Shown here in pieces: positions 22,114-61,694 of a stretch of 64,000 nt of DNA (position 1 is the stretch's first letter; every line of letters starts with the position of its first letter). The stretch is from positions 1,240,001-1,304,000 of the forward strand of contig JAVHNS010000015.1 of the NCBI GenBank assembly GCA_036872755.1, written 5' to 3'. The position numbers and the translations under genes were made by a program. This stretch comes from Orbilia blumenaviensis. Taxonomy: Eukaryota; Ascomycota; Orbiliomycetes; Orbiliales; Orbiliaceae. Under the pieces are notes generated by a model. That model saw only the letters and a list, made by a program, of their open reading frames with translations, did not search any database and was not told the origin of the DNA.

Positions 22114-22178
22114 ATTTGGTTTGGTTTGGTTTGGTTTGGTTTGGTTTGGTTTCGTTCGCTCGTTCGTTCGTTCGTTCG
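22114..22178 (+). repeat. TTTGG then TTCG microsatellites
   Basis: About seven TTTGG pentamers are followed directly by TTCG tetramers. It is not a TTAGGG-type telomere repeat. Confidence 0.9.
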
Positions 22179-22528
22179 GGCAGCCACCAAGCGGAAAACT
22201 TTTGGCTTCCCACAACACCACACGAGTTTGCTCCAAGTTCGCTGCGTTGCAAGTTGCCACCCCACCACGCTAGTAGTAGTATCTTTGAGCTTAAGCGAAC
22301 AACCAAACATTGCCTGCCGACCGGACGATTTGTCGCTAGACATCTTCAACTAGATGTATTTTGTATTTTTAGGACTCGTAGGCTGGAGTTTGAGGCTTGG
22401 TTCGAGGCCAGAAGAAGGAGAAGAGGGAGAAGAGGGAGCGTGGTGGAGGATAGCTGAGGAGGAGAACCTCCAGCCATGGCCAGCCAGCTGGGTTCCACAC
22501 AACACTTTAAGCCACTCCCGTTTAAGCT

Positions 22529-22557
22529 ACCGACCGACCGACCGACCGACCGACCGA
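22529..22557 (+). repeat. ACCG tetranucleotide repeat
   Basis: About seven perfect tandem ACCG units. Confidence 0.9.
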
Positions 22558-23924
22558 TTTTAACGAAGCTAGCTAGCCGACCGGTTAGATTAACGTTCTG
22601 TCGCTACAGCAGCTTGAGTATCGATAGTAGGTTGGAGATGCAGCTGATCGGAGGTCTTGGAGACTGTAGTCAAAGGATGTGGAGATGTCAAGGTGTAAGG
22701 CTGGGAGATCGGAGTTAGAAGGTGGAGGGTGAAAGGTGGGAGGGTGGGGAGCGGAGGTTAATAGGTATACATACCTGAGTACCTATTCCATTGAAAGGTA
22801 GAACGGGAAGGTACATAGTCGGACAAGTATCGGTGAAAACATCCCAAGTTGGACAGCCATAAGCTAGCTAGCTACTTGTTGGTAGGCAGCCTGCTAGGTA
22901 TGGGTGGAATGTGGGCGAAATATGGGCGAAATACGGGTGGCTACCAGAGAATGGAGGAACCGGCGGACAAGTATCAATAGCGGGACAGCCGGACAGACAT
23001 CGGTAGTGAGAGACGGACAGACTTCGTTGAAAAACGGACAGACATCGGTGAAAAATGGACAGACATTGGTGAAAAACGGACAGGCATCGATGGACAGACA
23101 TAGGCGGATGGACAGACATCGGCGGACAGATATAGGTGGACGGACAGATATAAGCAGGCGTCGTACCGGAAATTATGGTGGAATTAGCGGTGCAGACTAT
23201 GGATCCCGGAAAATATAGCGATATATTGGTAATCAGGCCGGCTGTTTTCTGTCAAAGGATCTTTTAGTTAGCTGGTTCCGAACTAATACCTTTAGGATCA
23301 TTTGAGCTTAGTAGCGTAGGGTCTTATTGCATAACTTACAATATTTTGTGTGGCGATAGCTCGCAGTAAGAGAGCATACTCATAGGTGCAGGTACCAAAC
23401 ACTATCGTAGGATGTCATATCTTTGCCTGCTGCACGAGTATTTGCTCCGGTGGAGAGTCCGCTCTCTAGTTTACCTCGGAGACGACAACGATGCTGAGTG
23501 AATGAGTGGGTCCGAGGATTTTTTTTTTTTTTTTTTTTTCCGATGCCATAGTATACTGCGAAAGTTCAATCGGTAGGGCTAGAAGCAAGAAGTTAGAAGG
23601 AAGACGGATTCGAAGAGCATGTAAATAAGCCGGTACATATACACATACGTTGAAGGGGAGCACATAGGTCGGAGAGCCTAGCCTCTGAAAATCTCAATTC
23701 CAGGGGCGATGGTGTTCATGTTGCGAGATACTGTCATCTACGACGTCATAACGGTAGTCTTGTAGGCCGAAGAGAAGCTAGTTTGGCGGCAGTGGCGGCT
23801 ATTTAGCACGTAAACTAACTAACTACCTAGGTAACTAAGCTTTCGCGTCCGAATCGAGTAATTTCTCTTTTAGGTTTAAATCGCCAAAGCATGTGCTTGG
23901 CGTGGTGATCGACAACTTGCTTAG

Positions 23925-24034
23925 CCGCTCACGGGGGTGACACTAAAAGCGAAACAAAAAACGAACACTTGCTAACAAAATTCCACCCAAAATTTATATT
24001 CTTGTTTCTGTTTTTTTGTCACCCCCGTGCCGCT
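23925..24034. mobile_element. MITE-like element with terminal inverted repeats and 5-bp target duplication
   Basis: A 100-bp unit (23930-24029) starts CACGGGGGTGACA and ends with its exact reverse complement TGTCACCCCCGTG. The inverted similarity continues imperfectly for about 15 more bases (GCGAAACAAA against CAGAAACAAG). Both ends are flanked by the same five bases, CCGCT (23925-23929 and 24030-24034), which is the mark of a transposition target duplication. It has no coding capacity. The parent transposase family cannot be told from this one copy. Confidence 0.75.
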
Positions 24035-24607
24035 GTAGATGGAGGAGCTGGCTACAGCCGTGTGTAAATAAGGTAATTGCGTGTGGTTTAGCTTGTTATT
24101 GAATTAGTTAGTTGGGTAGTTTAGTTAGGTGGATAACTAGGTAGATTTGTAGTTACTTGTTTTGCTCCAACGCTAGTTAATATCGAAATCTTGTTGTGTT
24201 CCGGTTGCGCGTTGTCTTTGTGATATTATTTCCGTAGTCCAGTGTTGGCTTCAGCGAGAGGACTTGGAGTGAACTAAATTCATGATCAAACCAACTATTA
24301 AAAGTAGCCTCGAGCTGGTGGCTAGGCCAGGGTCCGTCGAGGAGAGCCGTTTGGTCAGTTGAAGTCGCTGCGTTCTGTTATTTTCAGAGTAAGTAACGTA
24401 ATATGAAGTAATTAATGAACGAGTGTAACCAGCTTACTATAACCGAACTAAAATGGCGAACGGAATCATGATGCGAAAAACGGAGATTGTGGAAGGAAAG
24501 GCGTAGGCACAGGCACAGGCAGCGGATATGAAAAAAGGGTAAAAGAAATAAAGGGACAGCGCAAGTAGTAAGCAACAGCAGGAGAAAACCGGAACCGAGA
24601 GCCGTCG

Positions 24608-25248
24608 TTACCCGATTACTTCATAAAATTCATCACTTGTGTAGTCGAGTTTTGGATCACTCGTGGTGGACTTTGGCTTTGGCAATATCACTGGTTCGGG
24701 GAGCCTTGTCGAGGTGTCCGGCTTAGAACCATTGCGAATACGGAAAAAATAATAAATTTCTTCCTTGTAGTCAACCGCCACTGAGAAAGTATTGGGGTGG
24801 TTGGAGACCAACTTGGCGAGCTTCTCCAAAGTCGATTTCAGCTGCTCGTCTTCTAACCGTTAATTAGTTATTGATTAGATCAAAAAAAAACATTTCATTT
24901 ATGCACGGTCGAGGTCTGGGAATGAGATGATAATGATACAGATAACAGAAGAAAGAACGTACGGCTCTTGGTCGGGTCGGCTTGGTCGAGAAGGTTGCTC
25001 GATATCAAGGTGAGGACCGATTTTTGGTCCTCGGTGAGGTGTTCCCGAATTTTAGTTATCAAAGGACCGATTGCATCTTCAGGCTGTGCAGAAAGCTCTA
25101 TATTATGAATTAGTTAGAAAGCAAGCAAGCAGCATACCACCGAGTCGGGGGGCGCGGAAGGGAGGTACGAACTGTCTGCAAATTGCTGCACTTCTTTGAT
25201 GACGCTGGCGGTCGCCGGATCAACATTTTCGTCGCCTGTAGAGTTCAT
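24608..25248 (-). CDS. Small acidic protein of unknown function
   Basis: Three exons: 25173-25248, 24963-25097, 24608-24852; 151 aa. The start ATG gives MNSTGDENVDPATASVIKEV and the protein ends TSDEFYEVIG. The first two thirds are predicted helical (SVIKEVQQFADKL, PLITKIREHLTEDQKSVL, QLKSTLEKLAKLVS), then FSVAVDYKEEIYYFFRIRNG looks like a beta hairpin. No motif is recognised. Splice phases are consistent and the total is a multiple of three, which supports a real gene. It is the first gene of the accessory block and points the same way as the two following minus-strand genes. Confidence 0.6.
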
Positions 25249-25599
25249 GATGTCTAGTCACTATGGAAGTCAGTTTTGCCTCCAAACCATTCGACGGTGG
25301 TGAAGGCTACGTACAGGCGAGATCAGCCGGAATAGCGGTAGCAGCAACAGCAGCAGTAGCAACAGTAGTAACAGTAGCAGGTAACGCCTGAGGAGACTCC
25401 CGTGCACGAGAAGGCAAAGACTTGTTAGCGTAGGTCTAGACCGGGATGGAGTAGGTGCGGCTGGTGAGTGGAGAGAGGTGAGGCGATGGTGGCGATGGTG
25501 GTGGAGAGATGATTGCGATGGTGGAGGTGAAGGTGGCTATTGGGGAGGGGATGGGTCATGTATAGTACAATGTGTGTGTTGCTAAAGCTCACAAAAAAA

Positions 25600-25633
<34 letters not shown>

Positions 25634-26114
25634 GACGAGGTGTTCCCGGTGTAGCTGCGGAACATCCTGAAGCTCCGAGCCTCTACCAAAAATCAGAGAT
25701 ATTGATATCTTAAGCTTGAACGCAGAAGTGTCAGCTGTAGCGGTGGCAATGGGCGATCAACTAGCCTCCCGTAGCTGGCCTATAGTGCGTACTCTTTTCG
25801 AGGGAAGTACTTCTACACATCTAGTAAACTAGGTCATACCGAGCATGCTGAGGATGGCTATTGTACCTCTATGAATATATATATATATATATTGGCCTAA
25901 GCATAGGTGCAAGAATGACCGTGGCAAACACAGTGGGTCACGCGATCCTAGTGCACGCGAAATTGAAAGCAGAAAGGGAAACCATGACATCGAAAGGAAA
26001 AGGCTGCTTCAGCAGGCCGCAAAGGGGGACACACCTTTAAACACATGCTGCATCTAAAGATAGCATGAAAATTAAAAAGAGAAGAAGAAGAAAAGGAGAC
26101 GGGAGGGGTTGAAG
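25249..26114. other. Gene-free stretch with microsatellites
   Basis: Contains an imperfect CAG/ACAG triplet tract (about 25338-25380), a purine-rich block with A16 followed by a GA dinucleotide run (about 25592-25633), and an AT run near 25877-25891. No gene seen. Confidence 0.6.
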
Positions 26115-28049
26115 TTATTTGGCACCGCGCAGAGAGGAGGGGGTCCACTTGTTCACGGATTTGGCCTTTTGCTGGCTTCTCCGGTGCGAGCGGGCTTCCA
26201 GACTCCCTAAGGCATTTTTATTTACGAGGAAACACAGGGCAAGCCAGAGGTTTGGCTTCTCACCGGTGACACCTCCACACCAGTTGGTGAAGTGGTTCTC
26301 GTCGGCGTCGAGCACATCAGAATCCTTCAGGAAGTTTAAGACTTTTGGTTCCAAAGAAATTTTGAACGCTAGTGGGCGTAAAATTTCAACAAGACGGTCT
26401 GTTGAATCGTCATGTAGATATACGAAGGGGCCCCCACATCGGTAGCACGTGATACCACGGTTGTCGAACTTTAGATCCATACGGAATCGTCTGTAGGGAT
26501 TGTACAAGTTATTGTGCTTCAAACAATAACTTGATTGCTTCGGTCTGGAGTTGATGGTCGGGAGTCCGGTATCGTCCAGTTTGGCGAGGGTAACCTCAAC
26601 AGCGCAAGCCATGCAGGCGTGTTCATTTTTGAGAACCCATTGAACCGTAGCCTGTTCCTCATCGCGACTTGGGAGATAGACCGCTGGAGGAGCAGAAGCA
26701 TCCGAAGACAGGGCCTGAGACTGTTCTGGAGGCTCGGAGTCCAGATCTTCGTTTCTCTCCGCGACAACTACAAAAGGCTGTCAGTTTATACATCTTAGAT
26801 TGTGCGGACGGAGTTGACTTACGGTTTCCCATAGCTTCTAAGATTTTATCTGCATCGGGACGCTTCTCAATCGCTTTGAAGATATGCAGTGCAACTGTGG
26901 TTGAGATTAGCAGTTTTGTATGTGCACAAGATTTAAAAATTAGAGTTACGTACGCTTGTTAGAGTTGTTACTGACGTCTAGATATATGGAGGTTGGATTA
27001 GTATAATATGGAAAGGAAGTGGGAGTGGTTTGGGTTGTATAAAGTAGTGCCAACCAAACTTACCCAGCTCGATTGCTTTAGCGATTGTATCACCGATGGA
27101 TTCGATGGTCTTTCTGCCTGATCGGATTGAGCACAAAATAAGCAGAAAGCCGTGAGTTGGGGAAGGGGACACTTACTTTTGGGTTTAGGTTTTGGGAGGG
27201 GATCTTCCGCAGGTGGTGAGCTCGAAGGAGCCTTGGAGCGGTTTAGGTCAGAAGAGGCCTTGGAACGGCTCGACCTGGATGATTGCTTTTGGGCCGACCC
27301 AGACGACATCTTTGACGGGTTTGACCCGGATGACATCTTTGACGGATTTGGCTCAGAAGAGACCTTGGAGGGCTTTGGTGCAGGAGAAGCCTTCGGTGGC
27401 TCTGGCCTGGAGGTCTTGGGGGATTCTGCCCTTGGAAGCAGCTTGTGGCTTCGGCCTCCAGGTGGGTTTGGAAGATTAGGGTCTACTACTCGTTAGCATG
27501 GCTGGTTCTAGAGAGAAACACATGCGATGCTGAATAGGGAGGTTCAATCTGCCTACCTAGAGTGGCAATGGCTTGGCCGCGGGCAAAGGCAAACAGATTT
27601 TCGATACTGAATGAATTTGTCTCTACGCAGATATTAATGTGGATACCAAGGACCTGGAAACAAAAAAAAACACAGCACAGGCAGGAAATCGGAGGAAATT
27701 GAAGGCACTGGCACTAAGCCATGGGTAGGAGATGGGAGGGGCAGCTGATGCAATCGCTAGCACTGTGCCAACACAGGTTACGCAGCAGCGGTAGAGGCCA
27801 TACAACCACGCCTGGAGATCATACAGAAAAGCTGCGAAAAGGAGAGGGTATATGTATCAAGGCCAACTGTAAGCAATAATGGGAGGAGCGACTGGGAGCG
27901 ATTCCTGGGAGGGACAATGGCTGGTACCTGGGGAAGAGGTAGTGGAAGGAAAAAATTGTTATACCTGACTCGGACTGAACGCCATCGCCATCGCCATCGC
28001 CATCGCCATCATCACTCGCCAGCTTACTGAATGATCGTTTGCGTGACAT
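26115..28049 (-). CDS. Basic/disordered protein with C-terminal CxxC-CxxH-CxxC zinc module
   Basis: Eight exons: 27965-28049, 27782-27831, 27557-27653, 27177-27488, 27064-27117, 26954-26977, 26824-26894 (the donor fits 26823 by phase), 26115-26767; 448 aa. It begins MSRKRSFSKLASDD followed by five GD pairs. A helical segment (FLYDLQAWLYGLYRCC) precedes a long S/P/K-rich basic region with two KMSSGS-type repeats. The C-terminal module has CMAC, then YCLKHNN, then CYRC, probably a zinc site. The same arrangement is seen in the genes at 38320 and 53527 of this block. Five or six of the eight exons are under 100 nt. No known family; nucleic-acid binding is plausible from the charge and the zinc site but is inference. 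Confidence 0.68.
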
Positions 28050-28973
28050 TTCAAGGATGGTAAAACCAGAGAGAGATATATATATAAGCTAAAAGGATGT
28101 ATACAAAGTAACAAGGGTTCCGAAGGCGTCTACGCAGGGGGATGGGAGTGAGCAAAGTGTAGAGTGAGTGCCCTTGCGATGAAGGGGAGTAGATGGGGTG
28201 GTGGTGGTGAGCCTAAAAGGTTGTTGGCGGTGAAGAAATACCATAGGAGGCTACCCCTTCCAGCCGGCACAACGCAACCTCATAGTTGAAACTTAGCTTA
28301 CTACTGCATACAGCGGAATACGGTGTGTACGGGCATCTACTAGTTTTATACCACATATAATTCAAAACTTGGGGCCTCAAAGGGCACGCTGCTAATAGCC
28401 TGAGAGGCCGTAGTTTTAAAACTACGGACCTCCAGAATTAGCGTAGGGATTATCTCGATGGGAACGGGAGCTCTATGGGACATTATATAACTGATAGTTG
28501 CCTGGCTAGGTATTTATAAAGGGAATTATCGCGGCTGTAGCCCCGCCGCGGGCTGACGTAGGAAGAAAAAATCCAAAGGATGGTTTAGCAACCAAAAGCC
28601 CAAGAGAACAAACAGTAATTGAGTAGCCAAAAGCCCAAGGGAACAAGGAATGGTAACAATTGTACGGAAGGATGAAGGGAAAAAAAAAAAAAAAAAAAGG
28701 ACGGGATGTACAGATATAATAGTGAAGAAAAATACATATATAAGGTGGCTCTGAAATTGGGAAGAAAAATATCTAGGCCCGGCGGTGCTCCAAACACGCT
28801 CCGTGGGTTATTCAAGCACCTGAACGTCGGAAAGGACAGAGGGCCTTGAAGTAGACTGGTCTCCTCCGTAGTCTGGTCGGTTGGACATGGCTGGCTCAGG
28901 TTGAGAAGGTGTCGACGGCTTCCCCTAACTCACAGACACACGTACATATATAGGTATATATGTATGTGTGTGT

Positions 28974-29013
<40 letters not shown>

Positions 29014-29150: not shown

Positions 29151-32100
29151 CTAGAGGAGAGGCAGGAAGTCGGTCGCCTGCAAGGCACACAGCAATCTCC
29201 ACATGTTATTTTCCCCTTCTCCGCAGTCGTTGACCGTGCTGATGAGCCAGTCCATGTATTCTTTGATGTTTGTGATGCCCATTTCGGCTTGCCAGATCCC
29301 CATGTAGCTAAACATTCTATATTTGAGGTCTTCGTCGTTCCATACAGCCCAACAGACCGCCCTCGGGCCATCACGGTTACAGCAGTTCAGCTGCAGGCTG
29401 TCCTCCGAGAAACACCCGACAGATTTTAGCGGGAGAGAACATTCGAAGCAGAAGTTTTCAACGTTGGGGAAGAGGTCTGAGAAATCCTGGAATGGTTCTC
29501 CCTGAGGGCAGATGGGGCACTCCCCGGTGTGGATTATTCTGCGTCCGACAAGATAGCAGGCCGCACACTCGCCCCTGCCCAGTTGCATCAGGACACTCAA
29601 TATATCTTGCTGCTGCTGCTTTCTCTGAGCCATAGCCCTGCGAACGTCCGGGATTGAGGGTCTGGATTGTGTTTCTTTGCTGGTGACCGTCACCCGACAG
29701 TTATCACACAGCTCGCCGCCGCATGTTCGACATTCGACCGGCTCTCCATCGTTGAGCTGGCTGAGGATCAACCGGCGACACTCACTTGTTTCCACAAAAT
29801 CAACAAGCCCCTGATAGAGCACCGTTCTCCAGGGTTGACGGCTGAGGTGGTTCTGTTCTCTCATAGCCGGCTCTGAACATAACACCACGACCCGCCCTTT
29901 TTGGCCTTGCCTGGCGACCCTTCCTGCTTGCTGGATGAAGTCGATACTCGAATAGGGCAGACCGCAAAATATTCCCAGCAGGACATTCTTAGCGTTGTAT
30001 CCAGCGCTCCAGCATGTGGTTGCTGCCAGAACAGTGCACTCGTCCAGGGTTTCGAAGCATTCCAGTATCACACCCCTTTGCTCGTCGTTGAGCTCGCTGT
30101 AGAATGGTAGAATGTTGAGCGATTTCAAACCGGCCAGGTGTAATGCCTGTGCTTTGCTCCGACAGAACACCACTATCTTTCCGCCCTGGCTTCGGATGCT
30201 GGCGACCTCGCTGCGGATTATTTCTTCAGTCATATTCAAAAACGCTTCGCTGACCGTCACCGCATAGGAAACGTTTTTGACATTGGTAGGCACCCTCATT
30301 GTGATGTACTTCTTGATACTGGTAAACTCGGTGAAAGCGCCGCTCATAATGGGAGGGAAGCTGGCTGTCATGAACACCAGTTGCGTGGGGATAGCGGAGA
30401 GATAGACCAGCTTGTTCAACTTGCGAAAGCCCTCATCGACGATAGGCTGGTGGCATTCGTCTAGAACGATTCGGTCGAGCTGCTGGCGTGACCAAAGCTC
30501 TCCAATAAAGCAACGAAATGACGTTGTGACAGCTGATTCCGGCGTCGAGACTATGAGATATGGAGGCTTTGGAGGGATGTGTTTCTCACCCGAGTCCCCT
30601 CGATAGAAGGTAGCCTTGATGCCCTTCTCGTTTGCCCTTTTGACGACGTCCTCGCATGTGGCGATATAGGGCTCAATTATAACCGTAACTCTTGATCCTG
30701 GAATTTTCATAGCGACCAGAATGGCTTCCGTCTTTCCGATAGAGGTCGGTAGGATCGCAAGAAGAGGCCCGTGCTTGAGGAAGAGCGCCCGGGCGAATTC
30801 AGCCTGCGCGTCGCATTTGAACTTAGCCTCCGGTCCGTGTAGAGCTATCAGTGCCTGGAGAATCTCTTTCGGGTAGGGGTTTGGCTGCGTATAGACGCTT
30901 AAGTGCACAGGGGGTTGTGCGAGCGGAGCCTCGGGAGCAGCTGGAGCTGGTTCGGGGGCAGTCTGGGGCAGTACTGGTGGGTAGGGAGCGACTGGCGGGA
31001 GGAGCTGTGTGGTTCCACCGTAAAGGCTATTCCACTTTCCTCTAAACATCTCGATCACTACACCGACCAATGTCAGCCAGCTACATTTGTACATGTGTAT
31101 ATGCTGTAATATAGTACTTACTTTCATGCTGGAGAACCGGCGGTTTAAAGACCCAATCTGGTAAATCTGTGATAGCACCGATGAAGAAGTGCCAGTACAT
31201 AGAAGCAATCCTAGAGTTCTCGACGATTTCGCCAGGACCCATGGACTCAGCATCGACGCCATAGCAGTGATCCCGTGTGTTCTGGCCATGGCCGGTTTGG
31301 AAAGCAAAACTGCTCTCTTCGATAGCGGTCTCCTTCAGACGCTGAACCATGACTCCGAAGCGCTCGAGGTGCTTCTTCGTCATCGCAACAACCAGCTGCC
31401 GATAGGTGCTGATCTTGAGATTGAAGCCAAAACTGGCAGTCGCGGAGTCGGCTAGTGAGTCGGAAAGCTTCTCCGACCTCCATGACCTCCCGTTCGCATC
31501 ATGAAACAGGAACGGGGTCATCACAGCACAGCCAATCTTTTTTCTCAAGTAACAGGCGAAGGGTTTCACCACCAGGTCGAACATCAAAAAGCTGTCCCCG
31601 ACGTCGGGCGGGAAGAACCTGTAGATACACTATGTATGCGCACGGATCAGATGCTGCTAGAGCGAGCGGGGACCCAGGGGGGGATAGGGGCGGGCTCATG
31701 AAAGCAAACCTTCGCGGAACCGGTAAAGGCCATCGTCTTGTTATAAGCTATCGCGGATACAACGGTGCGGCCCTCCCAAATAAAGAAAGTTCGTTGATAT
31801 TTTGCAGTGTTGCAAACTCGACTTCCAAGGATCTCAGGCCCACGGGGTGGCTGACCGCCGGTAATGTGCATTGCGATGGCCAGGACGACCAGATATCTCT
31901 CTACTAGATCCAGATAGTCCCGTGCCGTAGAGAACTTGAGCACCCCATCCACCGTGAAGAAGCGGCTTCTGAGTTCAGGTGCGGCGTAGATTTTCCGTAG
32001 CAGATGCGAGTAAAAGGAACTGAAGTTGTTCCTACCGTCTGCGGTGTAGGACCACCCCAAAGCTGTCTCGGATTGGATATCGTAGATAGTCGGGGGGAGG

Positions 32101-34263
32101 ATGGGCCACGAGGATTTATCGTCGCACAGTAGCAAATTCCCTGTTAGCTCGCCGAGAAGACGTATCTCATCTGCGACAAACTTCTTAAAAAGATAGATAT
32201 CAAAGACGTGGCCTTTGTACGAAAGTTTTGAATATCCGCTGGTGTCATCCCAGTGGATTTTATTCAAGGCTAGGACGTCGAGGGACAGAACTTTTCCGTA
32301 AGCCAGCAGCGAGAGAGCCTCGCCCATGACGCTTCTGCTGTTATCCCTCAGGTACGGCTTTAGGGATTCGAAGTAGGCGTGGAATGGAGCCTCGCCCTTC
32401 TCCGGGTCCTTGGCCAGCACTTTTTCCTGATAGCGCAGGCACGCGCGAAGGCAGAGCAGACGGGAGCAAAAGATGAAGCCAGCGAGAAACTTTGTATATC
32501 TCTCTGGGGGGCGAAATATCCTCGACTCGCGATCATAGCCCACGAGGCAGAGAAAGTTTATCCCCAGGTTTGAGAACCGCTTCAGGCCGAAAGACTGTAC
32601 AAGAATACACTTGACGAACAGGGCAATGATACGGTCTGGGAGCTCTTCCCGAAGCACAGGGTCAACGGCACAGGTAGCGAGACTCTTGAGCAACTGGTCG
32701 GTCTTATCGGGAACATCCACACCGATCAGCTCCAGCTCCTTCTGACTCAACCACTGCAGCCGAACCAGAAAACAAAGCAGACGGATCAGCACCCTGAAGT
32801 ACGCCGTGTGGGTTGCGGGTAGCTGTTTGGCACAGAAGAGTCGGGGGGACGTCGATTCGCCGGGAGACCTCAGTTCTTTGAGAGTGACGACGTCGACATC
32901 GGAAATAAGATCCAACGTGCCGTACAGCACGGTTTCCGCGGCCTTAATGATGGGACGGAGGATTTCGAAATCGGGACTTTGGTCGGTGGGGACCTCTGTC
33001 AAACGAACATACTTGGCGGCTACCTCTGACCCGCTCCCGCCGTACTGCAGCCATTGGGTCCTTAGGAGCCAAGGTGGGGTGGCCATTGCTTCATCACTCA
33101 GCTCTTCGTCGTCGATGGCGCGCATTCTATCCAGCAGCTCGAGTTCTCGAGCCAGAAGGTCGGTATCACGGGGGGCACGCGGGGTTTGAGTAGCGAGAAC
33201 TTCGAAATAGACTTTGCCTACCCCCGTATGGAGCAGCTGGGCCTGGCATTCAACCGTCGTCTTGTCGGAACATCCTCTTTGGTAGTGCCAAGTCGAAGTG
33301 CCAATCCGGATGGCATTGCACGACCTGCATTTATAGGCCCTGATAGGAGGGTTTATATCCGTAATGGGCGGTCCGGGAGGGCTATTATTCAGATCTCGCT
33401 CTTTTGATTTGATTTCATCGTGCGTCATGAGGCCTAGAGGCTCAACGGTCTTTTCAATCGATTTCATGACCCGTGAGTACGAGTCATTTCTCTTGTGGAT
33501 ACCATTCTTCAAATGAGCGACCAGCCGGTCGACGCCGACGCAGACCTTACACTCCCGACAGACAACCGCATTGATTGTTTTGTTCACAGCATAATTGAGC
33601 TCGCTCAGGCTACCCACAATGTTCTTTTGCACCGCCAAGTCAGCATCAATCCTTAAAATCTGTTCATACATGCATTAAACCATCTAGATATACGCACATA
33701 TCTTGGGCTTTTGCATATCTTAACTATGTACATATATACGAAAAAATTGTATGGATCTAATATGTAATAGAGAGGATTACTTACTTGCTCGTCGCATTGT
33801 ATTTGTGGCTGCTGCTCTGACTGAGAGGGCTGCAGCGTGCTCTGGCGGGGAGTGCTTGGAGGGTCATCAGGCACGACTTGGGGAGGCTCAGGAGCAACAG
33901 AAGCGGTACTTCCGGGGTGGAGGACACCCTGTGACAAAACATCCGCTGCCTCACCTGCACCGTTTTCGTTCAGCTATGAAGAAAGTCAGAGCAAAGTTAA
34001 ATTATAAGATCAAGGTCAAGACCTACCGGAGCCTGAGTAGGGGGGGCGGGGTGGCTTTTGACATGACCTCGAAGGTTGTTCGGATTGTCATATAGCATCT
34101 GGCAGCCGGGACACTCGAACTTGCCGTCCTTTCGCTGCAGTTTCACCTTTTCTCCATTTCCAAAGGTGACTAGAACCGCCTTCTGGTGAACACAGCGCCG
34201 GTGCTCTGACAGCTTGGCTTCGTCTGGGAACACCTCCTGGCAGGTGGCACAGCGGGAGGACAT
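29151..34263 (-). CDS. Zinc finger / OrsD-like / tyrosine-recombinase-like / RecQ-type helicase fusion
   Basis: Five exons: 34027-34263, 33785-33973, 31710-33659, 31122-31629, 29151-31057; 1596 aa. Two C2H2 fingers lie in residues 1-72. An OrsD/DUF3505-like zinc region (CRECKVCVGVDRLVAHL, then YKCRSCN...WHYQRGC) follows at about 165-265. Residues about 735-920 have the layout of a tyrosine recombinase: GGQPPRGPEI (R748), YNKT (K783), TYRQ (R869), GHGQNTRDHCYG (H906, Y915). R-to-R spacing of 121 and H-to-Y spacing of 9 match Cre-like enzymes. The rest is an SF2 helicase: PTSIGKTE, LDECHQ, MTASFPP and QQAGRVARQG. A cysteine-rich tail begins CAACYLVG. Known fungal proteins join OrsD regions to RecQ-like helicases, some telomere-linked; the recombinase reading is my inference. 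All motifs look intact. It may mobilise the surrounding block. Confidence 0.85.
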
Positions 34264-35332: not shown

Positions 35333-37618
35333 CTAAGGTCGAATTTTTTCCCCCATAAGAAGCCACAGCCATCGGTCTCCAGCGTCGTCCAATGGGAGTT
35401 TCAGCTTCGATGCGTCTTCCAAAGTAAGACCTCTACACCAGCCGTCTGAGCCGTCTACCCAGATCCCAGTCGATATCCTCCAGCGACGAGAGTAGTGGAC
35501 GACGTTACAGAGAGGGATATCGAGGCCTATTGCCTTTGAGACTAGATTGGAAATGCCGGCAGCAGTAAACGGACGGTTGGAGATATCACGAAAGACAGTC
35601 TGCGGGTCGAGAGTGACACGTGGTGCCTGATTTTCGTTGGCGTAGAGAGAGAGCTTCTCCTTGAAGGGCACAACAAATATCAAGTAGACCAACCAAAATG
35701 CACTCATGAGGAAGCCCAGCCGTCTGATCACAGGATTTTCGGTCCCCCATGCCATGTACACCCTGCCTTCACGGAAAAAGATGTTATTGGCTAGAACTGT
35801 GCCATCCTTCGCGACGAGCGTAGCTAGCCTCTCAGGAGACTCTCCGAGGTAGATTATAGAAGTAGCCATGAGTAGAGTTTCGTATTTCGCGCAAAATTCC
35901 AGCTGTGAGGCCAAGAGCTTTTCATCCGGGGCAGCCTCGAAAGATGGGTTGTTCTTTAGGAATTCTTGCCACAAATTGTCGCGGGGACCCGAGTCAGGAA
36001 GAAATAAGCAGTCGTCAGTGGGAGAGTTCGTGACACCGCCGTCGAGAAGGATGCTAGAAAAGTGCTTCATGACTATGCCTAAGAAGTCTTCGGTCAAACC
36101 TCGGAAAATTTCCCTGATGCGTCTGGAATCCATGAGCTTAGAGGGCTGTGAATAATATCGCAGATATTGAGAACTGCGGGCCACCATCCCAATAGCAGTG
36201 TTATGCGCAGGATTTGCCGCGTCGCAGTACGAAGACTCGTCATCGAAGGGATTGCCTGGGATACGTTTGAGGGAGAGCTCGGAGGCTGTTTTCCATACCA
36301 GCAGATGATCGACCATCTCTATCGCTACATCAAAGACGAATAAAATCTGGTCATCCGCAAGGAGTGTGGATGTCTTTACAGTGTGCTTGGAGGCCCAGAT
36401 CTTAAGGAATGATAGCAGGATATTTGCTGACACCCGTTGCATGCCGTCCAGAGGTTGCAAAGCGCAGTCAAGAACGAGGCTCACTAGATACCGTTCCATA
36501 TTTTCATCAGAGGCAGCGCAGGCCAGGTTCAGGAGGGTGGTGGTTAAGGTTTCCGGAGGGGAAATACCGGATGCAGTAAGGCTAGACTCCCTGCAGTCGT
36601 CGAGTATTTCGAGAGTGAACTCGACAAAGCTGGTGAATAGCTCAAAATGTACAAGAGAAGGCAGCACACGGTCTAGTTTCAGAGCCTTGATGATATTTGC
36701 GGAGGTTGCAAATATCCGTCGGGCAAGCTGCTTCCTGTATGCACTCTGCGGGCTATCCGTGCCTGGAACCTGGTAGGCTAGGTGGAAGTTGGTGTGGACA
36801 TCCACACCGCTCTCTCGCCAGAAGAGAGTGATCGGAGGGAGGAATACGGGATTCGTCGGTCCGTATTTGGATACCTCATAGATCCCCCCGGGCGCCAGAG
36901 CGGATGTTGTATCATTCGGAGCAACCGGTAGATCATCCAGAATGGCCAGTGGATCATCCAAAGTGGCTGGTGGGTCGTTCTTCAGGCCCTTCTTGAGCCG
37001 GACAGGGGATTCATCTCTCGCCGGACGCGATTTACCCTTAGATTCAGTGCAGTTGCTTTTCAGCTTGGCGAGCTCACTTAGGAAGTATTTGGGTGACCCA
37101 GCGGTGGTTTCGGGGCTGGACGATTTGGTCATATCGATGATGTCGATATGGGTAGCTCCCGGCGACACAGGGAGATGTGCAGAGAGAGATTTACACGAGA
37201 CACTTCCAAGGAGATCAGATGCAGGCTCATCTTCGGGCACCGGGTTATCATCCTGGCTGGGACTAGCACACTGCGAGCTTCCCTGGACGATCGGACTGAG
37301 GATGCCATCAGTGCCGGGATTGATGCTCTCCGGGATATTTTGCGGGGCACGCAGCTCCAGTTCTGGATCTGAGAGGGCTAGCAAGGTGGCTGGACGCTGA
37401 ACGAGGGGAGCAGCAAGCGGAGGAGAGGACATCTTATTACCCGCCTGAAGGATATTCGCCATAGTCTTTCCAAGCTTTTCCCTGAGGGTCGAGGCCTCGA
37501 GACGATGAGGCGGTGAAGAGTTCATCGTGGTGATGGTTGAGAGGGTAGATATGGGCGATGGTTGGGGCGACGTTGGCTCGATGCTCAAGTTGAGTTGCGT
37601 CATCAATACTCTATACAT
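35333..37618 (-). CDS. Large protein with degenerate tyrosine-recombinase-like C-terminus
   Basis: A single open frame of 761 aa from ATG 37618; ATGs at codons 6 and 32 are alternatives. The first 250 residues are disordered and rich in S, P, D and E. The rest is mostly helical. The C-terminal 180 residues can be laid on the recombinase core of the genes at 29151 and 48752: GESPERLATL for GQPPRGPEIL, NIFFREGRVYM for TFFIWEGRTVV, VFRDISNRPFT for LFHDANGRSW, and VVHYSRRWRIST for ISTYRQLVVAM. The distance between the first and second Arg regions is nearly the same (about 115 against 121). The Lys, the GH histidine and the Tyr are absent, so it cannot be an active recombinase. It may be a regulatory or DNA-binding relative. 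The similarity is by eye only. Confidence 0.72.
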   Translation of the reverse strand: MYRVLMTQLNLSIEPTSPQPSPISTLSTITTMNSSPPHRLEASTLREKLGKTMANILQAGNKMSSPPLAAPLVQRPATLLALSDPELELRAPQNIPESINPGTDGILSPIVQGSSQCASPSQDDNPVPEDEPASDLLGSVSCKSLSAHLPVSPGATHIDIIDMTKSSSPETTAGSPKYFLSELAKLKSNCTESKGKSRPARDESPVRLKKGLKNDPPATLDDPLAILDDLPVAPNDTTSALAPGGIYEVSKYGPTNPVFLPPITLFWRESGVDVHTNFHLAYQVPGTDSPQSAYRKQLARRIFATSANIIKALKLDRVLPSLVHFELFTSFVEFTLEILDDCRESSLTASGISPPETLTTTLLNLACAASDENMERYLVSLVLDCALQPLDGMQRVSANILLSFLKIWASKHTVKTSTLLADDQILFVFDVAIEMVDHLLVWKTASELSLKRIPGNPFDDESSYCDAANPAHNTAIGMVARSSQYLRYYSQPSKLMDSRRIREIFRGLTEDFLGIVMKHFSSILLDGGVTNSPTDDCLFLPDSGPRDNLWQEFLKNNPSFEAAPDEKLLASQLEFCAKYETLLMATSIIYLGESPERLATLVAKDGTVLANNIFFREGRVYMAWGTENPVIRRLGFLMSAFWLVYLIFVVPFKEKLSLYANENQAPRVTLDPQTVFRDISNRPFTAAGISNLVSKAIGLDIPLCNVVHYSRRWRISTGIWVDGSDGWCRGLTLEDASKLKLPLDDAGDRWLWLLMGEKIRP

Positions 37619-37935
37619 ATTTGCGTACGCACAACCTCCCGCCCCCTAATCGACACCGAAGTGATACGTACTGGCTGCCTTGCTTAACTGCTAAGTACTT
37701 ACCAACCTACGCCCTTAATTTCTTTCCTACGGACCTACCACAGAGGACAATGGAAGCCTTGATACGTGTTTTCACGATTCAGGTATATAACATAGAGAGA
37801 CAGCCATCTTTGAAGTCATCCAGGGAGCGCTCGAGCCCTCGGTCTAGTTTCAAGTTAGCCAAAATCCGTGTGGTACCTCCCTCTTCGTTTAGATACTTCC
37901 TAAGTAGGTATATATCTAAGCAGGCAGGGCTACAG

Positions 37936-47737: not shown

Positions 47738-48751
47738 GCCTATAACTGGGTGCCAACGAGTCTCACCGTGGCGGATTGGAGGTTTTATCCATTTATTATT
47801 TCTTTTTATTACAAATACGTACAACCAGCGTATATAACCCAACCACGCCCCTTCTTTTCTCCCCTCAGTATATACACAAGTGGCCACACAAGTGGCCACA
47901 CAATATAGATGCTGCTGACACCTGGAAATTTTCTCCGCGCTTACATGATGGCGACGAAATATGTATATAATTGTGTGGCTCGAAATTTGCCCCCTAAGCT
48001 TTAATTGGAGTTTCTAGTAACCGCTCAAGCTCTCTAAAGTCGGGCCTAGTCACCGAAATTATAGTCCCGGAGAAATATTGCCAAGGGATCGTTGCTGCGG
48101 ACCTAACTACTATCTGCGATGTAACTGGAGGCGCCAGTATAGTAATCCAGCTTTCTCTACATGATATTAATACGTTGGTTACCGAGTACTATAGTCGCCA
48201 AAGTTCCAGCTTTCGAAAGCTCGAAGTATACTAGGACAGTGAACCACGCTTAACTCGAAAGCGTTCCCACCCACTTCCCTCTTTGTTTCATGTCTGCTGC
48301 TGCTGTAAACTTGTGAACGGCAGAGGAAGCTACTTTAAGTTTGCCAACCGTAGACGTTGGAAGGAGGAGAAGCGAAGCCAAAGGAGGCAGCCGAATTGAA
48401 TAAATAGTAAGTCAAATACACTGGTTAAGGAGATTAGTCTAATTTGGACCCTAGTTTCTGGACAGACGCCCCTGGAGAAGTATTTACAGATTGTAGGTGT
48501 AAAGTGGTCTCGTTGGAACGAGACAACACGGCGTGTAAAGTATGTTACAATACTTTGCATGGCAAAGTAGCAGCCCCATATACCTTCGGCAAACAAATAA
48601 AATAAATAAAAAGACAACGTAAGCCAACTCCGTATATATCGAGAGATTCGATGCCAAGCACCGAGGGCCCTTCTAGTGCCACCAAAGATGAAGCAGAACT
48701 GACGATATATCATGGATGGGATTTGACTGAGCCCAATGCGAGCATTCAATA
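47738..48751. other. Gene-free stretch
   Basis: Space between two convergent genes. It has a 12-bp direct repeat GTGGCCACACAA at about 47881 and 47893 and a short CTTTCGAAAG palindrome near 48212. No gene seen. Confidence 0.5.
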
Positions 48752-51700
48752 TCAAAGAGGGGAGTAGGCGTCAAGCATAGGGAGGAGGGCGTTCTCGATG
48801 TTAAAATCGGTTCCGAAAGACTGTGTATCTAGCATATCCGTGTCGCCATCGGCCTCGGTTGAGACTGATACAAGTCCTGAGCCGCTATTCCTGCTTTCGC
48901 ACTCGTCAAGCAATCTTGCTGCGGTTGGTTCATGCGGGACGAGAGGAATGTCCGAGAGTAGTCTCATCTGCCGGATCAGATTCTCGTTTGACCTGAAGAG
49001 TGCGAGGGCATAAGCCTTAGACACTGTTTCTTGTTAGATTTGCTCACTTTCACAGTATCTAGTCTGAGACCAGACCAGAGTATCTTGGGAACACAAAACA
49101 ACAAAAAAAAAAAAGAAAGAAAGAGGCGGGAAGGGTTTAGCATACATTTAGAAGCCAGAACAGGGGGATACACCACCCATTCGGGCAGCTCGTCCAGCGC
49201 TCCAATGAAGACCTGCCAATACACGGAGGCATGGCGCGACTCCGTAATTGACTCTGCAGTTATCCCAATGATATCATTAGCGTCAACCCCGTAGGAGAAG
49301 TCCCGCATATCGTTGGTATGGCCGGCTTGGTAAGCGTAGATGTTGACACTCTGATTCCGCTGCCTCTCTATTACCAGCGACAGTGGCTCAACGTATCTTT
49401 TGGCTATCGCTATCGCAATCTGTCGGTACTTGCGCGGCCTGAGTTCGAAATCCATCACGCTAAAGGCCTCCTCCTCCATGAAGGCGGCCAGGCGTTCCGC
49501 CCTCCACCTTTCAGCATTAGGGGTCACGAACAGGAATGGGCTTTTCTTAAGCTCTCGTGATCTTTCCAATAAATACCAATAAAACGGAAGGACAGTAGTG
49601 AGATAGTAAATGATCTGGTCGGCGAGGAAGGGGGGCGGAAACCGGCATATATTCTAGATCGTTAGAACAGTCTACAAAGGTACGTAGAATGGGGGGGGGC
49701 TTCGAGGCATACCTTGAGTTTTCCCTTAGTCTCCTGGGTCTTGGAGTAGGACGTGGTAATCATTACGGTGCGATTCTCGATGATATAGATATTCCGCTGG
49801 TGATACTCCGTGTTTTTGAAGCGGAGGGTCAGGATCTCTGTGCTTCGTATAGGCTGCCCGCAGGTGAACTGCATGGCGAGACACAGCAGTGCCAGATAGC
49901 GAGAGACATGAGTTGTATATTGTTCGACAGCGCTGTCCAGTAGAACATCCATGTTGCCATACAGTCTCCCCTTCTTGGCCGGGTCTCTCATCAACGAAAT
50001 CACCATGAACCTGGACAGCTCCTGGATGGTAGAATGATTTCGCTGATCGCTTCTGAAACTCCAGTCGGCTGCTGTATTACTAGGGACGTCAAAAAGTCTA
50101 TCCGGTAGCGGGGGCCAACCCCCTCGGTCGGTGGAGAATAGCAGATAATTAAGCTCTGTCTCTAGACACTCGAAGACATGTTTTACTAGGGATGTGAATT
50201 TGGGAATACTGAAGCATTCTCCATCCAGGTTCAGACTCTGATAACCATCTTCGACATTCCACTGTACTTGTCCGGGAGCAGCGTGGTTCCTCAAATGGAA
50301 AGCCCCCGCGCTATGCAGGCCGAGAATCTCGCCTGCGGTGGTCCGACAGGAGTCCTTCAGGCGTTGGCATATCTCATCAGCACTGGCGTGGAACCTTTGG
50401 GTCCTCGCCGGCTCTGCCAAAGCTTCGTCGCCATCCACTGCGTCCCAGCAAGAGCGGAGGGCTACCAACCGGAAACAAAACATTAGGCCTGCTAGAAGCG
50501 GGGTGTACCGCTCAGGACTTTTAAAAGTCTGATTGCTCGGACAATACCCCATCAGAGCCAGGAAGTTTACAGTTAAATTGCCGAACTTGCGGTTGATATA
50601 TACCTTCTCGGACAGTAATTCCCACATCAAACTGCCGATTTCCGCTGCTAGCGTCTCCGAGGAATCCGGTTCGACCGCGCAGCGCTTGATGTTTTGGATT
50701 ATTGCAAGAGTAGCGGAGGGCATGACGACGCCAGTGGCGATTTTGTCGGTTTCGTCGTATGTTATGCGAACCACGAAGCATACGAGCCGCGCCATCCACG
50801 TGAAATATTTGAGGTGCGTCCGCTTTTGATGCCGGCGCGAAAACGGCCGCAAATCAAGATCCTCATTTGGAGAGCGAATGTTACGAAGTGTGATGTTGTC
50901 AGTGTCGTCTATCAGATTGAGGTACTGGTGCAGGAGCGCCTTTGTCTGTGTGAAAACGGCATCCAGTACTTCAAAATTCCGGTCTTCCGGTGCCGGTTTA
51001 TAGGTAAGTCTGGAGAGGGTCGCCATGATTCTCATATCGGCATAGTCATGCCACCCGGTTCTTGTGATCCAGGGGGGCTCTCGAACTTCCTCGGTGACGA
51101 CGGCATCCAACTGTCGCATTGCGCTTGCTAAGATGTCTAGCTGCTTCTGGAGTGCCCCCTCCGCCTCAGTCATGTGGTTCTCGACTTCAGGCACCGCTAC
51201 TTTGAAGTAGGAACTGCCGATTCCCACCGTGAGGGCCTGCACGTGGCACTTGACGAAGGAGGCACCATTACAGGCCTTTCCGTGATGTTTGATGGAATCA
51301 AGGGTGGCCCGAAGCCGGCCGCATCTGGTGCATTCGAATCCATCCGAAACCGGAAAATATGGGAACGGCGGAACCGGGCCAATCCTGCGGAGATGGGGTA
51401 CCCAGCGAGCAAGGTCTCCATGGGGCAGGAAGGGTAGTGGCGTCAGCTGTCTTTCCAGCGCAATGAGCTCCGATCTGTTAACCTTCCTACCATGCAGTCG
51501 AAGCCGGTGGCTATGGATACGGCTAGGATTGATACAGAAGCCGCAGTCCAGACAGACTAAGGCTCTCAGCTCGGACACTATCTCGAGGTTGATGTATCTT
51601 AGGTTGCGCAAAGTCGTCTGACGTAGGCATCAGTTTTGCGTATTAAATTGCATTCGCCGTTATAATTAGCTAGCAGGGTATACAGAGCAGTAACTCACGT

Positions 51701-52428
51701 CGTCTACGTCGAACGCTCCCTCATCCAATGGTTCCAATTCTGATTCAAGTCAGCGCGCGCGCCCCGCGCGATCCACAATTTCGCGGAGAAGACTAACCCA
51801 ACTCTGGTGCTATTTCCAGCTCTATATGGGCCGCTGTAAGTTCGCTGGCAGAAACACCAACAGGACGTGAGAGAGGGAGGCTCTCGTCGTCTAACTCCTC
51901 GGTGCTCTCTTGGCCATTCTCATCTTCACTCTCCTCTTCTGCGTCGCTTTCGTCTTCTGCATCGCTTCCGTCTTCGTCGGTCTATAATGTATATATATAT
52001 GCGCCGTTAGTTCAGCTGCAAGCGTATACATATAGATATACGCGGATATGGCAGGCTCTTACCTGTTCCACTCCTTCCTATCATGTACAATTAGCATCGG
52101 CCGAGATGATTATGATAAAGGATAAATAGAATAAAATGGGGTAGGCATAACGAGAATGGAGCTGGAGAGGATGACTTACTGCTGCAAGATGTACAGCGCA
52201 GTCCTTAGCGTGGACGAGCAATGCATTGGGGTTCCTGTATTTGATGCCGCAAGAGCAACTGAAATAACCGCTGGGGCTCCGCTCTATCAACCGTTTGGAG
52301 CCATCTGCATACGTAAGCGTCGTGGTTCTCTGATGGAACTCCCTGCGGTGCTTTGTCAATTCGCAGCTTTTGGCGAAAACGGCCGTGCAGTTGATTTTGA
52401 CGCAGCAGAAGACCCGCGAACTCGACAT
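48752..52428 (-). CDS. Zinc finger / OrsD-like / tyrosine-recombinase-like protein without helicase
   Basis: Seven exons: 52180-52428, 52063-52077 (15-nt exon, least certain), 51798-51981, 51699-51739, 49713-51617, 49146-49653, 48752-49023; 1057 aa. Paralogue of the protein at 29151: C2H2 fingers at the start, an acidic linker, an OrsD-like region (CLDCGFCINPSRIHSHRL), then CGQPIRSTEI (R754), YSKT (K789), KYRQ (R875) and GHTNDMRDFSYG (H910, Y919). K follows R by 35 residues and Y follows H by 9, exactly as in the other copy. The exon between K and the end of the core is 508 nt in both genes with the same phases. After the core, where the other copy has the helicase, it has only about 90 residues ending DAYSPL. 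The catalytic set is complete, so it may be an active recombinase. Confidence 0.82.
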
Positions 52429-53526
52429 GATGGTGTATCTAGATTCGATAACGGTATAAATCCGCAGATAGTATATATATCTCTATATAAGTCAGCTTAT
52501 ATCTATATAAGTCAGCACTGAGTATGATGGTGAATGCTACGCAGGCAAATACTATACGTACTACTGACGCTATAGCGACTACAGCATGCGTGTACCTACC
52601 AGGTATGTCTTTAATGCGTATCTCCGTAGTGTATATCTGGATCTGTAATATATATGCCTGTAATGTATGTTTGTGATATATGACCGTATATGTCTGTACG
52701 TAGGTATGTGAACCAAGGTCTTGAGGCGTGAAGCATGAGGTTCAGCTGAAGTCAAATCAGGAAACCAACTGGCCCTGGCTACTCTATTTAAATATAAATT
52801 TCCTTTCGGCAGCCCTCGACGCTGTTCTACTTGGCTCGATCTAACCATTTTTAAGTACACACTCAGGGGTTCACTATAATTACTTTTGAGCAACGTTAGG
52901 TTCAATCAGCCATTGGCGGGTTGCAATATTTAATTGCATGTGTGTGGGCGAGATTTCTCTCTCTCTCTTGAGAGTGTTGCACCAAAAACGCGTCGTCTCG
53001 CAACTCACCACCTCCCCCCACCAACGAACCAACCATTACCCGTCTACTCACCTATCCATCCAACACTCACCATCTCCCACCCAAGCTAGGCTCCCGTCAA
53101 AATCATCATCATTATCATCATCACCGCCGCGTCTCCGAGCATCTGCCTGTAAAATGTACGGTGTATGTACATACAGGTGTATGCACGATGTATGTACAGT
53201 ACATACATACATCCTACGGAAGCTCCGGGCCAGGCTGGCATGGTTAGGAGGTAGTGGGCTATAGTAGGCTGTCCGGGTCAACAAGGCAAGCATCCATCCG
53301 CTCGCTCGTATCGAACTTGATAATGATATAAGTCACATAGATACTGTCGATTATGCCGGTTGTTTTCTAGTCAGTTACAGGTTGCAGGCAAAATGGCCAT
53401 TATGTCATCGAGGCACCACCAGAACCTCCTCCCCCCGCACCCCCCACCTCTCCCCCCCTCCCTTCCGCCTCCAATCTCCCGTCTTCCATATTCGATCTCG
53501 CACCTCGCTGAGGCCTCCTCCCTAAG
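52429..53526. other. Gene-free divergent promoter region
   Basis: Lies between divergent genes 48752 and 53527. It contains short tandem TATATAAGTCAG units (about 52475-52516), a CATACA-rich stretch near 53160-53215 and a pyrimidine-rich stretch before the ATG at 53527. No gene seen. Confidence 0.5.
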
Positions 53527-61359: not shown

Positions 61360-61398
<39 letters not shown>

Positions 61399-61694
61399 CG
61401 GTTACGCTAATTCGCGTAGAAATCAGCTTGAAGAAATCGATGTCTCTGACGTCGCTGTATCTCCCGTTCGATCGCATACATCAGCTCCAGAACTACAAGG
61501 GCTGTAACATGGCATGCGGACTCGCTCAAGCGGAAGGAGGTAGCGATGGTATCCCGGACGTGCGTGACATTGAATCCGTCGGTTGGGTCGACTTTGCCGG
61601 TGCTAAGAAGTTTTCAAAACGCGTCAAGGAGATACTGGAGCATATTCGCCAGACGGATGGCTCGGCTCGGGACAACGAACGCGAGGATAAATGA
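60112..61694 (+). CDS. Degenerate JmjC-like paralogue
   Basis: Two exons, 60112-61339 and 61420-61694; 500 aa. The intron contains about 37 consecutive T. It follows the architecture of the gene at 57484, with its single intron at the same point of the domain in the same phase. Aligned segments: GFGEVGSLTVQYL for LHVEDLNTMSVNY, GATMWYIANP for DAKVWFVVHP, RHLEIFVKPDLLESAGIKL for RHLSVFILPDVLQNWGIRF, and FPYANFQEISL for MPHAYHQGYNA. Both iron-binding histidines and the acid are lost (H to G and H to F at the aligned sites), so it should not bind iron. The frame is open and the splice sites are normal, so it is not a simple pseudogene. It may be a non-catalytic partner. Confidence 0.75.

What the first reader, a model, noticed from the sequence alone, without database searches (positions are those of the whole stretch)
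29151..34263. Tyrosine-recombinase-like core fused to a RecQ-type helicase in an OrsD zinc-finger protein
Seen in sequence: between an OrsD/DUF3505-like zinc region and a complete SF2 helicase lie R748, K783, R869, H906 and Y915. The R-R spacing is 121 and the H-Y spacing 9, close to Cre (R173, R292, W315, Y324). Known: OrsD/RecQ-like fusion proteins are widespread in fungi and usually called telomere-linked helicases. Inference: the middle region is a tyrosine recombinase, so the protein would be a one-piece recombinase-helicase able to move DNA.
Basis: partly seen in the sequence, partly recalled or inferred. Interest (0 to 1): 0.82.

Follow-up and report, generated by a model that had tools for sequence, protein, structure and literature searches.

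The report
Subtelomeric helicase hides a tyrosine recombinase
A fungal gene family at chromosome ends, known only as 'helicases', also carries what looks like an intact DNA cut-and-rejoin (tyrosine recombinase) domain, and in this fungus it usually comes with a catalytically dead partner gene and a DNA palindrome that may be its target, which makes its unknown job directly testable.

Summary

It is a telomere-linked helicase (TLH): all 10 genomic copies without stops lie within about 130 kb of telomeres. My literature searches showed no paper naming a recombinase in TLHs. Beyond the finding: at 6 of 9 such chromosome ends an adjacent divergent paralogue has lost the active site, and a 22-bp palindrome occurs (up to 3 mismatches) at 10 places genome-wide, all subtelomeric, on 8 of 9 recombinase-bearing ends against 1 of 37 others. 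It is a candidate recombination site, unproven. No recombination event was seen.

The parts
29151..34263 (-). whole gene (TLH): exons 34263-34027, 33973-33785, 33659-31710, 31629-31122, 31057-29151; 1596 aa
   Evidence: agrees with P0001 except for the first 12 residues of exon 3 and the downstream run-on of P0001
34027..34263 (-). N-terminal C2H2-like zinc-finger exon; similar to the N-terminus of the second window paralogue and of the divergent partner genes on C6 and C10
   Evidence: E 4.5e-7, 8.3e-9, 8.9e-8
33315..33590 (-). OrsD (PF12013) zinc-finger region
   Evidence: 26.5 bits against cut-off 26.6
32214..32954 (-). helical core-binding domain, about residues 378-624
   Evidence: model residues from about 44 align with the N-terminal domains of XerH, most Cre entries and lambda Int
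31122..31928 (-). tyrosine-recombinase catalytic domain, about residues 720-954, interrupted by the intron 31709-31630
31842..31844 (-). codon of catalytic R748
   Evidence: R in 117 of 118 rows
31737..31739 (-). codon of catalytic K783
   Evidence: K in 119 of 119 rows
31399..31401 (-). codon of catalytic R869
   Evidence: R in 121 of 122 rows
31288..31290 (-). codon of catalytic H906
   Evidence: H in 121 of 121 rows
31261..31263 (-). codon of presumed nucleophile Y915
   Evidence: Y in 121 of 121 rows
29904..30806 (-). RecQ-type SF2 helicase core (GKT at residue 1069, DECH at 1161)
29151..29790 (-). Cys-rich C-terminal tail
   Evidence: read from the sequence; no Pfam match above cut-off
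35333..37645 (-). probable degenerate YR paralogue upstream in tandem, without the active site (likely the window's counterpart of the dead partner)
   Evidence: alignment; blastp 1.3e-6 to the C10 partner over 133 residues; hhalign against the YR domain only probability 17.7; not found by the partner search at E <= 0.001
48752..52438 (-). second OrsD-YR gene, no helicase found; R, K, R, H, Y all kept; intron at the same place as intron 3; outer limits approximate
48202..48227 (.). 26-bp quasi-palindrome AGTTCCAGCTTTCGAAAGCTCGAAGT, candidate recombination or binding site
   Evidence: controls 0

Best explanation
The gene is a telomere-linked helicase whose middle third is an intact enzyme of the tyrosine-recombinase fold. 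Shown by computation: zinc fingers, then a two-domain YR-like clamp (core-binding plus catalytic domain with R748-K783-R869-H906-Y915), then a RecQ-type core and a Cys-rich tail; conservation across fungi; subtelomeric confinement of the family in this genome; a paralogue without the active site beside most copies; a shared subtelomeric palindrome. Inferred: the zinc fingers and clamp bind a subtelomeric DNA site; Y915 makes a 3'-phosphotyrosyl bond with R748, K783, R869 and H906 activating the phosphate; the helicase opens or remodels the DNA or the Holliday junction; the dead partner acts as a structural subunit; the outcome is exchange, mobilisation or maintenance of subtelomeric blocks. 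Sub-probabilities: YR-superfamily fold with a complete R-K-R-H-Y set 0.95; acts as a DNA strand-exchange enzyme (not only a topoisomerase or binder) 0.65; the dead partner works with it 0.55; the palindrome is its site 0.35.
Confidence: 0.8

Rival explanations
1. The domain is a type IB topoisomerase-like swivelase: it nicks and reseals one strand near a RecQ motor, relaxing subtelomeric DNA, without recombining two sites.
Confidence: 0.15
2. It is the transposase of a selfish subtelomeric mobile element of the general kind of Cryptons or Starships, with no host role.
For: Eukaryotic stand-alone YR genes are often transposases (recalled); several copies at chromosome ends, several genes per cassette, one decayed pair on C12; C. 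higginsianum telomere-associated repeats with DUF3505 plus helicase were classed as transposable elements (PMC5576322, passages).
Against: No terminal repeats, target-site duplications or recent dispersed copies found: apart from the C14/C20 pair the Orbilia copies are only 25-32% identical to the window gene over about 800 residues, have no stops inside the domain and lie only in subtelomeres.
Confidence: 0.35
3. A YR-derived domain kept only for DNA binding, as in Crypton-derived DUF3504 proteins.
For: Such domestications are documented (PMC3212892, passages), and the neighbouring partner proteins look like that.
Against: The domesticated DUF3504 domains lost most of the catalytic residues; here 109 of 111 rows keep all five.
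Confidence: 0.05
4. The palindrome is not a recombination site but a regulatory or chromatin element (a binding site of a zinc-finger or other dimer) shared by subtelomeric genes.
For: Near-perfect symmetry, no long open frame through most copies, flanks largely unrelated between ends, position relative to the genes varies; the C14/C20 duplication does not break at it; one copy (C18) has no recombinase gene in the 6 kb fetched, and the C9 recombinase end has no copy.
Against: Association with recombinase-bearing ends (8 of 9 against 1 of 37, Fisher p 3.0e-7; 5 of 6 against 1 of 37, p 3.7e-5, leaving out C14, C15 and C20 from which the motif was found); its size is near that of known YR sites (two inverted repeats of 11-13 bp separated by 6-8 bp, PMC3212892, passages).
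Confidence: 0.5

Closest known systems
Fungal telomere-linked helicases (TLH: U. maydis UTASa/UTASb, M. oryzae TLH1, S. pombe tlh1, Metarhizium recQ gene, Colletotrichum 'tlh1')
   Same: Subtelomeric, RecQ-type core without RQC/HRDC match, OrsD/DUF3505 region; two family hits are named 'ATP-dependent DNA helicase tlh1' (P0073, P0122)
   Different: In the passages I saw no recombinase domain is described; [quoted passage not shown] bisporus var. [quoted passage not shown]
Xer/Cre/lambda-integrase tyrosine recombinases
   Same: Two-domain fold, R, K, R, H/W, Y and the 9-residue H/W-Y spacing (their residue numbers recalled)
   Different: No HxxR histidine; zinc fingers in front and a RecQ helicase behind; not found by HMMER profiles
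Cryptons (fungal YR transposons)
   Same: Eukaryotic YR encoded by a repeated chromosomal gene
   Different: CryptonF proteins carry a GCR1_C DNA-binding domain and most fungal Cryptons have 6-bp terminal direct repeats (PMC3212892, passages); no GCR1_C match here and no element ends could be drawn
Starship captains (DUF3435)
   Same: Fungal YR of Pezizomycotina
   Different: No Pfam DUF3435 match at E <= 5 in any of 10 members; captains as single-gene YRs without RecQ are recalled
KolobokH and AcademH transposons
   Same: Elements found in fungi that join a transposase to a helicase, RecQ in KolobokH (PMC9587614, passages; AcademH in PMC10799480, passages)
   Different: Their enzyme is of another kind (DDD/E transposase in Kolobok), not a YR
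Protelomerases (TelK, ResT)
   Different: Low structural scores; the fungal ends here are TTAGGG telomeres

Membership tests
Tyrosine recombinase superfamily | Two-domain YR fold (core-binding plus catalytic) | tested here: met
Tyrosine recombinase superfamily | Catalytic R, K, R, H/W and nucleophilic Y | tested here: met
   (by sequence; the Tyr loop is poorly modelled)
Tyrosine recombinase superfamily | Histidine of HxxR (the H of the R-H-R-Y tetrad) | tested here: not met
   H at R-3 in 1 of 122 rows; Y at R-1 in 116 of 122. Hence described as a YR-fold enzyme with a variant active site, not filed as a canonical R-H-R-Y recombinase
Tyrosine recombinase superfamily | Recognised by a curated family profile | tested here: not met
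   10 members; 4 proteins each
Tyrosine recombinase superfamily | Covalent 3'-phosphotyrosine and strand exchange | not testable with these tools
   needs biochemistry
Telomere-linked helicase (TLH) | RecQ-type helicase core | tested here: met
Telomere-linked helicase (TLH) | Location next to telomeres | tested here: met
   10 of 10 YR loci without stops lie on contig ends bearing TTAGGG repeats, 3 to about 130 kb away; the window copy is about 60 kb in
Telomere-linked helicase (TLH) | Sequence homology to proteins named TLH | tested here: met
   P0073 and P0122, named 'ATP-dependent DNA helicase tlh1' of Colletotrichum fructicola, are YR-domain relatives of P0003; S. pombe, U. maydis and M. 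oryzae TLHs were not compared
Crypton | GCR1_C domain | tested here: not met
   no match
Crypton | Short terminal direct repeats at element ends | tested here: inconclusive
   no element ends could be drawn
Starship captain | DUF3435 domain | tested here: not met
   no match at E <= 5; a captain profile was not compared directly
Type IB topoisomerase | R-K-R-H-Y without the HxxR histidine, TopIB catalytic fold | tested here: inconclusive

The most novel reading that the evidence does not exclude
Fungal chromosome ends carry a dedicated two-subunit recombinase-helicase machine: an active OrsD-YR-RecQ protein paired with a divergently transcribed, catalytically dead paralogue, acting at a short palindromic subtelomeric site to exchange, insert or maintain chromosome-end blocks, a eukaryotic counterpart of Xer or protelomerase systems that has been annotated as 'telomere-linked helicase' without its recombinase.
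Probability: 0.3. Interest if true: 0.92.

Novelty: new variant of a known kind. Interest (0 to 1): 0.8.

Why it matters
Telomere-linked helicases have been described in fungi since 1998 (reference lists) and their role is unsettled: telomere maintenance has been suggested, and doubted because one mushroom variety lacks them without telomere abnormality (PMC7473861, passages). A complete recombinase-type active site in the same polypeptide changes the question from 'why a helicase?' to 'which DNA does it cut and join?', names the residue to mutate (Y915) and offers a 26-bp candidate substrate. If confirmed it would be a YR-RecQ fusion enzyme and a possible engine of the reshuffling of fungal subtelomeres.

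Tried and rejected
Tried without result: Pfam, NCBIfam and PHROG scans for a YR profile; PDB profile searches; hhalign against XerC, XerD, FimB and FimE, not better than seven unrelated E. coli proteins; Foldseek E-values (best YR 0.078 and 0.18), where only the second look by VIA-align separated YRs from the rest; a profile search with 10 aligned members that returned one protein; tRNA search of the window and Rfam search of 28000-53000, none; a search for element ends and repeats round the genes, mainly simple repeats; a test whether the C14/C20 duplication breaks at the palindrome: it does not (1601 of 1601 nt round it identical; 1920 more nt identical further in).

Considered and rejected: a chance match of five residues; splicing artefact (in seven Orbilia copies the domain lies in one open frame, with the same residues); pseudogene (in one search no stop inside the match for the copies, except one TAG where the window's match overruns its intron; the C12 relic is the exception); chance palindrome (scrambled palindrome of the same composition 0 hits with up to 3 mismatches; reversed pattern 0; for the inner 14 nt the exact search found 4 places and its reversed control 1).

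Dropped or missing rows: one search lists 120 of 173 hits. Counts rest on 121 of 122 fetched proteins (132 domain hits, 128 aligned pieces), of which 111 pieces span all five residues. C20 was left out of the alignments as a near-copy of C14. The C12 relic (stops inside) is not counted among the 10 loci. The palindrome was found by comparing the C14 and C15 loci, so these and C20 are not independent; the test without them is given. In the alignment two partners (C5, C6) have an Arg and a Tyr, and one (C1) a Lys, in catalytic columns. The genome search states that its counts of large families are lower bounds.
Full report
WHAT WAS CHECKED. The window is contig C15, bases 1,240,001-1,304,000 of a 42.5-Mb genome in 23 contigs; a protein identical over the queried 401 residues is Orbilia blumenaviensis TWF730_003775 (Orbiliomycetes). 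The public model of the gene lacks 12 residues at the start of exon 3 and runs on downstream (2134 aa).

ANATOMY. N-terminal C2H2-like exon; OrsD region (26.5 bits, just under the 26.6 cut-off); a helical domain; the catalytic domain with the five residues; a RecQ-type helicase core (DEAD and Helicase_C; best solved relatives BLM, RECQ1 and RECQ5); a Cys-rich tail.

CONSERVATION. The genome holds ten copies of the catalytic domain without stops and one relic with stops (13 matches, two genes being matched as two exons each). Helicase matches lie beside eight of the ten, weakly on C3 (28% identity, E 2.2e-10); none beside the C9 copy or the second window gene. In an alignment of the window gene, the second window gene, seven other Orbilia copies and one Fusarium protein (22-32% identity to the first row), the five residues are five of 37 invariant positions. 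A search from the Fusarium protein returned 173 relatives, 120 listed, in Fusarium, Colletotrichum, Purpureocillium, Trichoderma, Chaetomium, Bipolaris, Pyrenophora, Verruconis, Teloschistes, other ascomycetes and unnamed metagenomes. In 128 aligned pieces from 121 proteins: R 117 of 118, K 119 of 119, R 121 of 122, H 121 of 121, Y 121 of 121, gaps left out. Of 111 pieces that span all five, 109 have all five, and the H-Y spacing is 9 in all 111. Median identity to the window domain is 25%. Six of 122 proteins carry the helicase in the same model; several models are labelled partial.

ACTIVE-SITE VARIANT. The histidine of HxxR is absent (H at R-3 in 1 of 122 rows); a Tyr precedes the second Arg in 116 of 122. 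The remaining set R-K-R-H-Y is what topoisomerase IB has (recalled), which is why a topoisomerase is kept as a rival.

WHERE IT LIES. All ten copies are on nine contig ends with TTAGGG arrays: C1, C3, C5, C6, C9, C10, C14, C15 (two) and C20, from about 3 to 130 kb from the telomere. That is what a telomere-linked helicase is, and two of the relatives carry the name tlh1. Stretches within 130 kb of the 46 contig ends make up about 14% of the genome (my arithmetic), so ten of ten is not chance.

THE DEAD PARTNER. Upstream of and divergent from the TLH on C1, C5, C6, C10, C14 and C20 lies a second large gene; none was found at E <= 0.001 on C3 or C9, and on C15 only a weak match to the second window gene itself. 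It has a C2H2 N-terminus (C6 and C10; the others by eye), a region that aligns along the YR domain, a helicase-like second half and a Cys-rich tail, but no Pfam helicase match (C10 and C14 partners). A profile of five partners finds all ten TLH rows (E 1e-18 to 4e-7 in a set of ten). In the alignment of ten TLHs with six such proteins (five partners and window 35333-37645), the first Arg and the His are lost in six of six; an Arg stands in the column of R869 in two (C5, C6), a Lys in that of K783 in one (C1) and a Tyr in that of Y915 in two (C5, C6); none has more than two of the five (the alignment is loose there). The window's example lies in tandem, not divergent, and is the least certain: blastp 1.3e-6 to the C10 partner, hhalign probability 17.7 against the YR domain. 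A third, small Cys-rich gene follows the partner on C1, C5 and C10 (33-35% identity).

THE PALINDROME. An exact 26-nt match between the window (48202-48227) and the C14 locus stood out among the cross-matches of fetched loci (one other short one, 36 bp at 92% between C10 and window 55104-55138, was not followed). It is nearly a perfect dyad. The 26 nt itself occurs, with up to 3 mismatches, at 8 places in 42.5 Mb; the symmetric inner 22 nt TTCGAGCTTTCGAAAGCTCGAA at 10: C1, C3, C5 (two), C6, C10, C14, C15, C18 and C20, all within about 58 kb of a contig end (contig lengths). The reversed pattern gives 0, a scrambled palindrome of equal composition 0. Eight of nine recombinase-bearing ends have it, against one of the other 37 contig ends (Fisher p = 3.0e-7; 1.4e-6 without C20; 3.7e-5 for 5 of 6 when C14, C15 and C20, from which the motif came, are left out). 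Flanking sequence is largely unrelated between ends (by eye C3 and C10 share a short motif). It lies 219-1074 bp beyond the last gene of the cassette on C1, C5 and C10, 272 bp beyond the partner on C6 and 525 bp beyond the last open frame assigned to the second window gene, about 0.5 kb beyond the last TLH match on C14 and C20, but about 270 bp upstream of the OrsD match on C3, and without a detectable TLH in the 6 kb read on C18. Published YR sites are two inverted repeats of 11-13 bp separated by 6-8 bp (PMC3212892, passages); a 10-6-10 reading fits that loosely. It is a candidate only: it could equally be a binding site for a dimeric regulator.

MECHANISM. Most likely (inference): zinc fingers and the two-domain clamp bind a subtelomeric site, Tyr915 cuts and rejoins, the RecQ motor remodels the junction, and the dead partner supplies structure or specificity. 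Nothing here shows an actual recombination event. The one recent subtelomeric duplication (C14/C20, 99.96-100% identical where compared) extends beyond the palindrome and so was not made by a crossover at it.

LITERATURE. Ten searches of the open library showed no paper that names a tyrosine recombinase in a telomere-linked helicase, judged from titles, starts of abstracts and the passages below; several listings were capped (20 of 8,457, 20 of 63, 30 of 38, 20 of 44). Passages seen: Agaricus bisporus, no domain other than the helicase core found (PMC7473861); Colletotrichum higginsianum telomere-associated elements with helicase plus DUF3505 (PMC5576322); U. maydis UTASb with an OrsD domain (PMC10532341); a Metarhizium OrsD gene identified with the recQ helicase gene (PMC11457142); Fusarium oxysporum TLHs, 'recombinase' 0 times (PMC12857005); Mycosphaerella graminicola RecQ genes (PMC4522978). 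No bioRxiv preprints and few subscription papers are in that library, so priority is not established.

VERDICT. I rate the protein a new variant of a known kind, with a clear route to testing.

Noticed in passing
window 48752-52438 (-): Second OrsD-YR gene without helicase, all five catalytic residues kept, intron at the same place.
   Followed up: yes
window 48202-48227: 26-bp quasi-palindrome shared by subtelomeres.
   Followed up: yes
C14 about 36-42.4 kb and C20 about 222-228 kb (L014/L015, L023/L024, L076/L077, L086/L087): Two chromosome ends carry the TLH locus nearly identical in the stretches compared.
   Followed up: partly
C12:1494838-1500232 (L021): Decayed TLH and partner pair with many stops, about 40 kb from the telomere.
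   Followed up: no
C8:3584-3967 (L031): Helicase remnant with three stops, 3.5 kb from a telomere.
   Followed up: no
L066:2163-2198 and window 55104-55138: A second short cross-match between the C10 locus and the window (36 bp, 92%).
   Followed up: no
C5:2640737-2640758: A second palindrome on the C5 end, 18 kb from the first; its surroundings were not read.
   Followed up: no
window 57448-58680 (+) and 60100-61410 (+): Two JmjC-domain genes close together.
   Followed up: no
window 40702-42483 (+) and 46185-47444 (+): Two ORFs whose C-termini look alike by eye (LGLGALIMFD / LGFGAFILFD); no Pfam match.
   Followed up: no
window 8130-11675 (-): Elongation-factor-3-like ABC protein (HEAT_EF3, ABC_tran, weak Chromo).
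   Followed up: no
window 15286-16203 (-) and 1579-2388 (+): Fungal fucose-specific lectin exon and multicopper oxidase exon.
   Followed up: no
window 21001-29000: Positive GC skew (0.14-0.25) over 8 kb.
   Followed up: no
P0002, Orbilia oligospora TWF173_000856: The public model lacks a short conserved piece of the catalytic domain around the third intron, probably a wrong splice.
   Followed up: no
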